Below are positions 1 to 4,382 of a stretch of DNA of 64,000 nucleotides, in pieces. Made by a program: the position numbers and the translations under genes. A model generated the notes under the pieces. It saw only the letters and a program-made list of their open reading frames with translations, made no database searches and was not told the DNA's origin. Every line of letters starts with the position of its first letter. The stretch's first letter is position 1. The DNA lies in the NCBI GenBank assembly GCA_017626435.1, contig JAGAIR010000006.1, positions 1 through 64,000 on the forward strand. Direction: 5' to 3'. Source of the stretch: Lachnospiraceae bacterium (lineage in GTDB: Bacteria > Bacillota_A > Clostridia > Lachnospirales > Lachnospiraceae).

Positions 1-336
1 GTTTAAATCTTTCTGCTTTATTTTATAGTGGGAAATCCGAACACTTTTTAAATAAGGCAGATATTCTAATCCGGATAGATTTAAATAAGGCTCTAAAGTA
101 TCATAATTGATAATCCAAAACTCTTTTGCCTTTTTAATTTCATTCTTGGACAGCATACCATCTTTGTTTTTATCGTAAGCTTCACTGATTTCCCATCTAA
201 TCTTTTCATCTGGAAAATGCTTTTCATCAATTTTTATGGGTTTGATTTTTTTGGCAGAAGCAATCTGTCCAGGCAGTAAAGCCATAAAAAACAGTGCCAT
301 TATAACCCAAATCATTTTCAATCCTGTTTTTCTCAT
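1..336 (-). CDS. Secreted EF-hand protein, 5' part only (runs off left edge)
   Basis: The frame opens with ATG at 336 behind a GGAGGAG ribosome site and stays open for 112 codons to base 1, so the C-terminus lies outside the window. Residues 1-28 form a signal peptide: basic start MRKTGLKM, a hydrophobic core, and a likely cleavage near IASA. Residues 53-64 read DKNKDGMLSKNE, a good EF-hand/dockerin-type calcium loop (Asp at 1, 3 and 5, Gly at 6, Glu at 12). The part after it (LNLSGLEYLPYLKSVRI) resembles the start of a leucine-rich repeat. The gene starts 20 bases after the subtilase stop and is probably the fourth gene of that operon. An exported calcium-binding surface protein is likely; the function is unknown. 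Confidence 0.72.
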   Translation of the reverse strand, partial: MRKTGLKMIWVIMALFFMALLPGQIASAKKIKPIKIDEKHFPDEKIRWEISEAYDKNKDGMLSKNEIKKAKEFWIINYDTLEPYLNLSGLEYLPYLKSVRISHYKIKQKDLN

Positions 337-356
337 CCTTCTCCTCCATTCTTTTT

Positions 357-2735
357 TTATTTCATTCCTGATAATTTGTACCATTCCTCTTCTTCCAGTA
401 CCAACTTAGGATTTAAATAATTGCCATTGGTCAGATTTCCATAGGAGGCACATACATGATCCGCCAGACTTCGTAAGCGGTACTGCTCACATCCCGAGCT
501 GGTGATATGAGGACAATATACATACATATCAAAATATTTTTTCGCCTCCCACAAATCCATTATCCGACTGCATGCCCATGCTGCCGCGAGAGAATACCGA
601 TATGGCAAAAAGTTTGTATTATCCTCCGTCAATCTGCGTATGATATCCTTTTTATCATCCGAGACAGCACAATTTTTTAACTGGCGGGTAGTCATATCTC
701 CTGATGCAATCCTCTCTTTCACCCTATCCGGATTGTCAAAGAGCTGTCCCATACTATAGCCACCTTCCGTAACAGCATATGCCACAGAATAGTAGGTAGG
801 TATAATTACCTGATGGGCATAGGCATCTCCCAAAATATGAAATGCAAGACCAAGCAAACCGCTTGCCTGTTTCTTGCTTGTACTTTGTTTTCGAATATCA
901 TTTAAAATAATATTCTGTACCTGCTTAAACTGCTCCCAATTGACTCCTGGTGCTCGTCGGTATAATTCATAATTTACCCCCAGCCCATCCAGATAGTCCT
1001 CCATCTCTTCATCATTTTTAGGCAGTGTAATCTTATTTTTTCCCACACTAAGCACCAAATCAAAAGCAATATTATACAGCATCCTTGCCCCTGCCACATA
1101 ATTGCTGTCCAGTCCCGCATGAAGGATAGCATTATTCTGATTGTCTTTAATTTTATAATCATCATCTGCTATAACAGAATATCGCAATACAATCTCCTTA
1201 TCCAGTGTAGACGGAAAACTGTCAATCAAAGCCTTATGCATATCTTTATTCCAGCTTGCCCTGACAATTTCCGGCAATACATACTCTTTCACAGTAGAAT
1301 CATTCACCTCTGCCGGATTTGCAGCAATATCCTTATCCCACTGTACCAGATCAAATTTCTCCATCACCTCCAATGCATGGGTATAATCCACAAGACCAAA
1401 TCCATATTCCTGTGTTTCTCCCAAATACCGTGCACTTCTCTGAAGGATACCGCGGATTTCCCGGTTACTTCTGTCTGCATCCTGCGACCAGAGCATTGCC
1501 GCCATTGCAGCCACATGAGGCGCTGCCAGACTGGTACCTCTTCCCACTGCCTGACATTGAAAGGAAGAACTGACCGGAATGTTTTCTCCTGGTGCCATCA
1601 GTTCAACACCATCTCCCACAGCACTAAACTCACTTCGTTCCATTTTTTCATTGACAGAGCCTACTCCGATCACCTGTTGATACCGGGCTGGATACTGCAC
1701 TCCATTTTCCTGTTCTGCTCCGTTATTTCCCGCTGCTGCAACCAGAAGAAGTCCTGCCTGTTCTGCTTTCACGACGAGGTCTTCCAATGTTTCAGAATAA
1801 TAATCTGTCCCAAAGCTCATATTGACCACATCCATCCCATTGTCAATACACCATTGGATTCCCTCTGCCACTCTGCTGACCGGTGCCTGGTTATTTTCGT
1901 CCAGCACTCTTACAGAATACATTTCAACAGCAGTATCAGAAGAGGTTACCCCTGTATTCGCCAATTCATTTTCTTTTGCTCCGATAACGGACTGTACGGC
2001 AGTTCCATGTCCGGTCAGATCCGTTCCATAAATATTATCTTCTCCATCCACCAGATCCACAGAACCTTTTACTTCATAATCTCCATAGATATCCCGTCCG
2101 GAATCCAGGACAGCAACCTTAATCGTGTCATTCCCTGTCTTTGTTCCATCCATGCGAATAGCATGTAAATTCCATTCACTCCGGGCTACAGTATCCAGTG
2201 CCTCCTTAAGCTCCTCTTCGTTTTGACTGTCTTGGGAAAAATCCACCACTGCTCCGGATGCCGCCTTTTCTACCGCTCCATCCACCAAAGCATCCACTTC
2301 TACAGAAACACCCTCTATTTTTTCCAGCTGACCAACATCTCTGGTTGATAAACTGGTCACCAGAAGATGTTCTTCCTGCAGCACCGCATAATCCTCTGTA
2401 TCCGATTTCTCTTTTCCCTCACAAAATACCTCTGCCTTCCGGTATGCCGATTTGGAATCTGCCTTTACGATATATCGTATCTTTCCCTTCTTATTGTATA
2501 GTATATGTTTCCTATCTACACTTGTTTCCTGCAGTTCCCCTTCCACGGAAACAGCGCCGGAAGTTACTGGAACTACAGAAATGTCTTTCTCTATGGTCCT
2601 GATTCCTTCTACCTGTTCCGGATGCTTCCTTTCTTTTTTTAACTGTGCACCGGCAGCTCCTGGCTGAATTTGAAAAATAACCAAATTTGCTGCCATCACC
2701 ACTGCCGCCATTCTCACCAGTTTTTCCTTTTTCAT
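357..2735 (-). CDS. Secreted subtilisin-family (S8) serine protease with extra C-terminal domain
   Basis: This is a 792-residue exported protease. Residues 1-30 are a signal peptide. Residues ~45-190 look like a prodomain. The S8 catalytic domain spans ~200-460 with Asp211 (AVLDSGRD), His243 (TGHGTAV), oxyanion Asn337 (AAAGNNG) and nucleophile Ser402 (GTSLAAPH), so it should be active. About 330 further residues (~465-792) are not part of the protease fold. They contain HILGDAYAH at 633-641, an H-x3-D-x3-H pattern that recalls the metal-binding helix of zinc-dependent phospholipase C/S1-P1 nucleases, and another His at 539. That resemblance is inferred from a short motif only. The gene follows the adenylate-forming enzyme by 56 bases and precedes the EF-hand gene by 20, indicating cotranscription. 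The catalytic assignment is firm; substrate and the C-terminal role are unknown. Confidence 0.9.
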   Translation of the reverse strand: MKKEKLVRMAAVVMAANLVIFQIQPGAAGAQLKKERKHPEQVEGIRTIEKDISVVPVTSGAVSVEGELQETSVDRKHILYNKKGKIRYIVKADSKSAYRKAEVFCEGKEKSDTEDYAVLQEEHLLVTSLSTRDVGQLEKIEGVSVEVDALVDGAVEKAASGAVVDFSQDSQNEEELKEALDTVARSEWNLHAIRMDGTKTGNDTIKVAVLDSGRDIYGDYEVKGSVDLVDGEDNIYGTDLTGHGTAVQSVIGAKENELANTGVTSSDTAVEMYSVRVLDENNQAPVSRVAEGIQWCIDNGMDVVNMSFGTDYYSETLEDLVVKAEQAGLLLVAAAGNNGAEQENGVQYPARYQQVIGVGSVNEKMERSEFSAVGDGVELMAPGENIPVSSSFQCQAVGRGTSLAAPHVAAMAAMLWSQDADRSNREIRGILQRSARYLGETQEYGFGLVDYTHALEVMEKFDLVQWDKDIAANPAEVNDSTVKEYVLPEIVRASWNKDMHKALIDSFPSTLDKEIVLRYSVIADDDYKIKDNQNNAILHAGLDSNYVAGARMLYNIAFDLVLSVGKNKITLPKNDEEMEDYLDGLGVNYELYRRAPGVNWEQFKQVQNIILNDIRKQSTSKKQASGLLGLAFHILGDAYAHQVIIPTYYSVAYAVTEGGYSMGQLFDNPDRVKERIASGDMTTRQLKNCAVSDDKKDIIRRLTEDNTNFLPYRYSLAAAWACSRIMDLWEAKKYFDMYVYCPHITSSGCEQYRLRSLADHVCASYGNLTNGNYLNPKLVLEEEEWYKLSGMK

Positions 2736-2791
2736 ACCTTTCTCCTCGTCTTTCTCTTCAAAAATGCAAATGAAAACATGGTTTCCATTTA

Positions 2792-4030: not shown

Positions 4031-4305
4031 ATGCCACCTCTATTCTTCTGATACAACTGTTCCTTTCCGGTACAGTCAATGATTTTGCACAGACAACCAA
4101 TCTGAGTGTAATTTTCTTCGATCAGGTTCATCTGATCCAGATGAATCTGATACTTTTCCTCCACTGCAAGCAGCAAATTCACAATCCCGACAGAATCCAG
4201 TCCTAAATCCTCAATTAAATCCATTTCATCAGACAAGGAAGTTTCTTCTATCTTCAATCCACAAATATCATACAGTATCATACATAGCTGTTGCTTTATT
4301 CCCAT
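4027..4305 (-). CDS. Stand-alone acyl/peptidyl carrier protein
   Basis: This 92-residue carrier protein has the phosphopantetheine site LGLDSVGIV, with attachment at Ser38. It is preceded by the acidic helix typical of ACPs (DEMDLIEDLG) and followed by AVEEKYQI. The start ATG at 4305 has an AGAGG ribosome site about ten bases upstream. The stop overlaps the start of the adenylate-forming enzyme, so the two are translationally coupled. It is clearly not the fatty-acid-synthesis AcpP, because the sequence is divergent and no fab genes are nearby. It probably carries the acyl group loaded by its neighbour and, with it, forms the first half of an operon that continues into the secreted subtilase. 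It needs a 4'-phosphopantetheinyl transferase from elsewhere in the genome. Confidence 0.86.
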   Translation of the reverse strand: MGIKQQLCMILYDICGLKIEETSLSDEMDLIEDLGLDSVGIVNLLLAVEEKYQIHLDQMNLIEENYTQIGCLCKIIDCTGKEQLYQKNRGGM

Positions 4306-4353
4306 TCCGTATTTTCCTCTTTTCGTCTCATGCCTTTACCCTATATTTTCCTA

Positions 4354-4382
4354 ATTTTACCATATCTATGGTCTTACCACAA
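4354..4382 (-). promoter_or_regulatory. SigA-type promoter of the acp-ligase-subtilase operon
   Basis: On the minus strand TTGTGG (4377-4382) is followed after exactly 17 bases by TAAAAT (4354-4359). Transcription would start near 4347, about 40 bases before the carrier-protein ATG. The promoter lies between the scpB terminator and the acp gene, so the four-gene unit is independent of scpAB. Confidence 0.5.

What the first reader, a model, noticed from the sequence alone, without database searches (positions are those of the whole stretch)
1..4382. Operon coupling a carrier protein and adenylate-forming enzyme to a secreted subtilase and EF-hand protein
One promoter appears to drive a stand-alone acyl carrier protein, a PaaK-like ligase with all catalytic motifs (coupled by a 4-base overlap), a secreted active-site-complete subtilase, and an exported EF-hand protein. 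An intracellular acyl-activation module is rarely paired with an extracellular protease, and no other biosynthetic enzyme is visible in the window. Possible explanations are acylation of an exported product that the protease matures, or lipid-modification of the protease/EF-hand proteins. This is the best candidate here for an undescribed system.
Basis: partly seen in the sequence, partly recalled or inferred. Interest (0 to 1): 0.7.

Follow-up and report, generated by a model that had tools for sequence, protein, structure and literature searches.

The report
Swappable secreted enzyme with acyl-activation genes
A gut bacterium carries a small gene cassette whose main product looks like a secreted protease fused to a phospholipase-like tail that differs between strains, a layout typical of bacterial weapons, with a probable leucine-rich partner protein and two acyl-activating genes whose role is still open.

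Summary
The four genes are real: ACP (4305-4027), PaaK-like ligase (4030-2792), secreted S8 subtilase (2735-357) and an exported protein cut by the window edge (336-1). A single promoter was not shown. The 'EF-hand protein' looks like the start of a leucine-rich-repeat (LRR) protein. The main discovery is the subtilase's C-terminus: a zinc phospholipase C/S1-P1-like tail (below the Pfam cut-off, but with conserved metal-ligand positions) that is polymorphic. A second allele is 99% identical to residue 555 and 52% after. Of 43 homologue pairs with near-identical catalytic domains and divergent tails, 37 switch at Ser+84..+100, by a conserved Trp. Two copies in one locus have dS 0.16 (protease) and 1.10 (tail). 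One genome holds 5'-truncated orphan tails, each before an LRR-like gene. Best reading: a self-processing, polymorphic toxin-like effector with an LRR partner, probably immunity; ACP/PaaK is an optional acyl-activation module. Toxicity, immunity, self-cleavage and acylation are inferred. Only 3 of 16 sampled genomes with the tail carry this PaaK.

The parts
4027..4305 (-). stand-alone acyl carrier protein (92 aa)
   Evidence: PF00550 E=4.7e-7, 30.4 bits against cut-off 20.8
2792..4030 (-). PaaK-like adenylate-forming ligase (412 aa), 4-base overlap with ACP
   Evidence: NF045666 103 bits, below its cut-off of 300; PDB profile match 9s3l E=3.5e-37; TSG..G, YG..E, Y..GD and K402 invariant in 29 sequences
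357..2735 (-). secreted subtilase with phospholipase-C-like C-terminal domain (792 aa)
   Evidence: PF00082 1e-41; model m9bdec73ed6fe matches pro-subtilisin E 3whi, E=1.3e-24
2646..2735 (-). predicted signal peptide (residues 1-30, by eye)
   Evidence: charged start, hydrophobic stretch, helix 2-22 in the model
1395..2126 (-). S8 catalytic domain (residues 204-447; D211, H243, S402)
360..1253 (-). C-terminal Zn-PLC/S1-P1-like domain (residues 495-792): W495, H500, D524, H539, H633-x3-D637-x3-H641, D705
360..1070 (-). segment that differs in the second allele (residues 556-792)
   Evidence: P0121 against P0122: 0.99 identity before, 0.52 after residue 555
1..336 (-). exported EF-hand-capped protein, N-terminus of a probable LRR protein, cut by the window edge
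   Evidence: EF-hand_1 17.3 bits, below cut-off; homologue L011:15145-16098 is an LRR_4 protein
4457..4494 (-). terminator-like hairpin after scpB, upstream of the cassette
   Evidence: RNA fold -17.7 kcal/mol, z -2.64, followed by UUUUUG
2766..2792 (-). hairpin between PaaK and S8 (possible attenuator)
   Evidence: z -2.02

Best explanation
The cassette encodes a polymorphic toxin-like effector system. A secreted subtilase (signal peptide, pro-peptide, S8 domain) carries a C-terminal zinc phospholipase C/S1-P1-like domain. In Listeria PC-PLC the N-terminal Trp must be a free N-terminus, so the fused S8 domain probably activates the tail by cutting just before W495 (inferred). The tail is replaced between strains by recombination (shown as mosaic copies in relatives and as an abrupt switch in the second allele), with silent tail+LRR cassettes as likely donors (cassettes shown in relatives, donation inferred). 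The exported protein encoded next, LRR in relatives, is most likely the cognate inhibitor or immunity protein acting outside the cell (inferred). PaaK would load an acyl group onto the ACP; a partner acyltransferase (BtrH-like in relatives, not found in the window) would transfer it to the effector or to another product. This last step is the least supported and is an optional accessory.
For: Allele pair with an abrupt tail switch. 43 pairs in 5 groups with catalytic identity >=0.93 and tail <0.70; in 37 the best break lies at Ser+84..+100, where the conserved Trp lies (example P0131 against P0142). Synonymous divergence jumps between the same parts (L011 copies, dS 0.16 and 1.10). Orphan tails followed by LRR-like genes in G007 (L136, L137) and a further orphan in G104 (L139). 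Eight metal-site-like positions kept while the rest varies; HxxxDxxxH in 68 of 69 long homologues. Fold rows 1-13 are all PLCs, rows 14-19 S1/P1-type nucleases. LRR_5 in 14 of 21 next genes from the genome sample. Subtilisin processing, the PLC/S1-P1-like Tox-HET-C and Imm-LRR are listed in polymorphic toxin systems (PMC3482391, passages). Trp1 requirement: PMC10576769, passages.
Confidence: 0.5

Rival explanations
1. Antigenic or receptor-specificity variation of a secreted enzyme: the S8-PLC protein and its LRR partner form a surface complex whose exposed tail varies to evade antibodies or phages or to change targets; the LRR is a docking partner, not immunity.
For: The variants keep the same catalytic positions, as expected if activity stays and the surface changes; BspA-type LRR proteins are common surface adhesins (recalled); silent cassettes fit antigenic variation equally well.
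Against: Orphan tail plus LRR-like pairs and an extra A-type LRR kept behind a B-type pair in L011 resemble toxin/immunity arrays; the partner differs together with the tail in the close group.
Confidence: 0.25
2. About the acyl genes only (compatible with the best explanation for S8/LRR): the ACP-PaaK pair belongs to a small-molecule or peptide pathway (butirosin-like acyl transfer or a CcpM-type peptide system) that merely shares a variable island with S8/LRR genes.
For: 30 of 54 PaaK loci have BtrH-like proteins within five genes, 17 a second adenylating enzyme; L044, a distant relative, has a TIGR04068-like radical SAM protein and a TIGR04066 protein; most tail-bearing genomes lack this PaaK.
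Against: By longest-ORF starts PaaK and S8 overlap by 37 bases in L011 and L017 and by 4 in L013; S8 linkage is clustered on the PaaK tree; no BtrH-like or second adenylating gene was found in the window.
Confidence: 0.4
3. One reading: the subtilase matures an acylated exported peptide, like a leader peptidase.
For: Subtilases do mature exported peptides in other systems (recalled).
Against: Little room for a precursor gene between positions 1 and 4516 (gaps of 20, 56 and 211 bases); the S8 protein has its own enzyme-like tail; S8-LRR units occur without acyl genes.
Confidence: 0.07

Closest known systems
Polymorphic toxin systems (Sec-exported, subtilisin-processed, Imm-LRR; Zhang et al. 2012, PMC3482391, passages seen)
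   Same: constant N-terminus, exchangeable C-terminal domain, orphan cassettes, adjacent partner gene, processing protease
   Different: the long tails seen are one enzyme class; the LRR partner is itself exported; activity and immunity not shown; acyl-activation genes attached in some loci
Zinc-dependent phospholipase C / S1-P1 nucleases (B. cereus PC-PLC, C. perfringens alpha-toxin, Listeria PC-PLC)
   Same: helical fold in the model, Trp...His...Asp...His...HxxxDxxxH pattern, need for a freed Trp N-terminus (inferred here)
   Different: 13-16% identity in the structural alignments to PLCs; Pfam score below cut-off; fused to its own protease; very variable apart from the conserved positions
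Class IV CDI with CdiC acyltransferase (PMC8510554, passages seen)
   Same: polymorphic toxin plus an ACP-linked acyl modification
   Different: uses a lysyl acyltransferase of the RTX type; here a dedicated ligase and ACP, and no such acyltransferase was identified
Butirosin-type acyl transfer (BtrH_N described as part of an ACP:aminoglycoside acyltransferase in PMC10318531, passages seen; other Btr enzymes recalled)
   Same: adenylating ligase, stand-alone ACP and BtrH_N-like proteins co-occur in relatives
   Different: ligase is PaaK-like; no BtrH-like gene in the window

Membership tests
Polymorphic toxin system | near-identical N-terminal part with different C-terminal domains | tested here: met
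Polymorphic toxin system | standalone (orphan) toxin cassettes present | tested here: met
   in relatives only: orphan tails in L136, L137, L139; mosaic copies in L011; in the window only a doubtful 51-aa remnant. Transfer from a cassette into an S8 gene was not shown
Polymorphic toxin system | adjacent cognate immunity gene | tested here: inconclusive
   exported, mostly LRR, next gene; co-variation only among close relatives; protection not testable
Polymorphic toxin system | export route and processing domain | tested here: met
   signal peptide by eye and S8 domain
Polymorphic toxin system | toxic activity | not testable with these tools
   none
Zn-dependent PLC / S1-P1 superfamily | metal-ligand pattern with Trp start and HxxxDxxxH | tested here: met
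   (in A6, W and H are not invariant, see evidence against); matching of single ligands to solved PLCs is recalled
Zn-dependent PLC / S1-P1 superfamily | Pfam PF00882 at gathering score | tested here: not met
   window protein 16.6 bits, tail alone 19.1, cut-off 26.8
Zn-dependent PLC / S1-P1 superfamily | common fold | tested here: inconclusive
S8 subtilase | catalytic triad and fold | tested here: met
Butirosin-type acyl transfer | ligase, ACP and BtrH acyltransferase together | tested here: inconclusive
   ligase and ACP present; no BtrH-like or second adenylating gene in the 64 kb window; left side unseen

The most novel reading that the evidence does not exclude
A new class of polymorphic effector in gut Firmicutes: a subtilase that in cis converts its own exchangeable phospholipase-C tail from zymogen to active enzyme by freeing an N-terminal Trp, guarded by an exported, co-swapped LRR immunity protein, and in some lineages acylated by a dedicated PaaK/ACP module.
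Probability: 0.3. Interest if true: 0.82.

Novelty: new variant of a known kind. Interest (0 to 1): 0.62.

Why it matters
If right, it shows how anaerobic gut Firmicutes may compete with close kin through self-activating, strain-swappable lipases, would explain part of the exported LRR proteins of Lachnospiraceae as cognate partners, and links a stand-alone acyl-activation module to an effector. It gives sharp tests: cleavage before W495, and cognate LRR inhibition.

Tried and rejected
Whole-genome look left of position 1: no genome is held for the window. Viral contigs: the one matched stretch does not encode a relative. Plasmids: 50 records, all under 60% identity. EF-hand protein as a free calcium-binding protein: rejected, homologues are LRR proteins. 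Tail profile against PDB sequences: no match up to E 10, so the PLC assignment rests on weak Pfam scores, motif and fold. A search with the tail alone found only the two alleles. Partial Mantel test over 18 units did not support LRR-tail co-variation beyond relatedness. That P0001/P0122 and P0002/P0123 are neighbours rests on equal contig lengths (8789 and 4143) in the listings; the contigs could not be read. Of the 79 loci only L001-L054 were analysed for neighbours; L055-L079 (25-31% identity) were left out. Papers: listings only; passages of five papers (PMC3482391, PMC12419801, PMC8510554, PMC10576769, PMC10318531). None of the titles or abstract starts listed, nor the passages, describes this architecture; one search listed only 15 of 332 papers, and the library lacks most subscription journals.

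Full report
What is there. On the minus strand, downstream of the conserved rplU-rpmA-obgE-scpA-scpB genes, lie an acyl carrier protein (4305-4027), a PaaK-like ligase (4030-2792), a secreted subtilase (2735-357) and an exported protein cut off at position 1. A terminator-like hairpin follows scpB, so the cassette may have its own promoter, but none was identified: promoter-like sites are at the shuffled level. A weaker hairpin lies between PaaK and S8. Of 397 sampled genomes of the family the window's ObgE is closest to that of G293 (92%), where scpB is followed by a 178-aa protein, an 88-aa protein (rpsO-like by eye) and a 709-aa protein (pnp-like by eye), with no cassette. In G007 and G199 (ObgE 83% and 81%) nothing in the fetched stretch after scpB matches the cassette proteins. 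Of the 3 genomes held for the genus of G293, itself included, one (G405) has a PaaK relative and an S8 relative, on different contigs. The cassette is therefore a variable insertion.

Is the grouping real? Of these 54, within five genes of PaaK, 36 have an ACP, 30 a BtrH-like protein, 17 a second adenylating enzyme and 8 an S8 gene, 6 of them with the tail (L001 and L049 without); in 5 (4 with the tail) the S8 gene is directly adjacent on the same strand. ACP-PaaK-S8-LRR order is seen in L011, L013, L017 and L142 (there a protein 26% identical to the BtrH-like set stands in front, and the S8 reading frame lacks its N-terminus). By longest-ORF starts PaaK and S8 overlap by 37 bases in L011 and L017. 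On a quick tree of 56 PaaKs the 10 rows labelled S8-linked need 5 changes (9.4 in shuffles, 0 of 500 as low), at least 3 of them forced; these may be separate gains or one gain and losses. Of the labels, P0002 rests on equal contig length, L008 and L026 on an S8 gene farther off in the locus, and L001 on S8 genes without the tail. Among 397 sampled genomes, 10 have this PaaK at E<=1e-40, 16 the tail domain at E<=1e-8, 3 both (Fisher p=0.0054). So the association is above chance but far from obligatory.

BtrH_N (PF14399) was matched, at E<=0.5, by 5 of 8 members of one neighbour alignment (best 7.8e-5) and 5 of 19 of the other (best 8e-6), so ligases of this subfamily often sit beside likely acyl-transfer proteins. 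In L044, a distant relative, neighbours score 446.8 bits for CcpM (cut-off 500) and 220.3 bits for TIGR04066 (cut-off 200); five other loci hold members of the same clusters. No BtrH-like or second adenylating gene is in the window.

The polymorphism. P0122, a second allele, is 99% identical to the window protein over residues 1-555 and 52% after. Among 81 long homologues, 62 pairs have catalytic domains at least 93% identical; 19 of these have tails at least 70% identical and 43, in 5 groups, under 70%. In 37 of the 43 the best break lies at Ser+84..+100; the other 6, the window pair among them (Ser+153), break elsewhere. In L011 two S8 genes of one locus have dS 0.16 in the catalytic part and 1.10 in the tail; L011 (first copy) and L017 share a tail type (tail dS 0.35) although their catalytic parts differ more (dS 0.49). 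This is mosaic evolution, not only relaxed selection. In G007 an intact S8-LRR pair is followed by a 5'-truncated tail and a second LRR-like gene, 70% identical in DNA over 2.65 kb; a further orphan tail with an LRR-like gene lies on another contig (L137), and orphans occur in G104 (L139) and, broken, in G004 (L140). The G007 orphan starts about 7 residues from where the window allele pair diverges, just behind the conserved NYVAA helix.

The partner. Of 30 tail loci cut from the 397-genome sample (8 seen before), 28 have a co-oriented next gene with a signal-peptide-like start, judged by eye; one has an AAA ATPase and one no visible gene. Of the 21 next genes not examined before, LRR_5 matches 14. 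In an earlier, chosen set of 31 partner proteins LRR_5 matches 15 and LRR_4 12, counts that may overlap. In the close group the first LRR follows the tail type (A-A 0.70-0.83, B-B 1.00, A-B 0.42-0.55), and behind the B-type pair a second, A-type LRR (0.91 to that of L008) is kept. Across all 18 units this co-variation is not significant once relatedness is removed (273 of 2000 permutations).

Interpretation. Of the features of polymorphic toxin systems given in PMC3482391 (passages), modular tails and orphan cassettes are met here; immunity is inconclusive and toxicity untestable. Subtilisin processing, a PLC/S1-P1-like toxin family (Tox-HET-C) and Imm-LRR are all listed there, so the parts are known; their combination in one self-processing protein with an exported LRR partner was not seen in the listings and passages consulted. 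The acyl module may lipidate the effector, as CdiC does for class IV CdiA (PMC8510554, passages, which name acyl-ACP as donor for the related RTX enzymes), or belong to a separate product. I give 0.5 to the effector reading as a whole and much less to the acyl link.

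Noticed in passing
window 62519-62674 (-): 51-aa ORF matches the D705/R713 segment of the tail domain (HMM E 3.8e-5 among 595 window ORFs; BLAST 6.5e-6 to P0200), but tblastn with the S8 tails against the same stretch found nothing at 0.01: possible orphan remnant, or chance.
   Followed up: partly
window 21287-32078 (-): KdpA/B/C-like and KdpD/E-like K+ uptake genes with Trk-like genes between them (named by eye).
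   Followed up: no
window 34152-38488 and 40697-43939 (-): carAB-like pair plus a second carbamoyl-phosphate-synthase large subunit a few kb away (by eye).
   Followed up: no
L044:14167-16751: CcpM-like radical SAM protein and TIGR04066 protein near a distant PaaK relative; L032, L046, L048, L049 and L052 hold members of the same clusters.
   Followed up: partly
L017:3-2441, L008:262-837: AgrB-like genes (by eye) and, in L017, LytTR (Pfam) and a histidine-kinase-like gene next to S8-LRR genes suggest quorum-sensing control.
   Followed up: no
L026:2518-4023: A probable transposase gene (by eye) sits between an S8 gene and its LRR genes.
   Followed up: no
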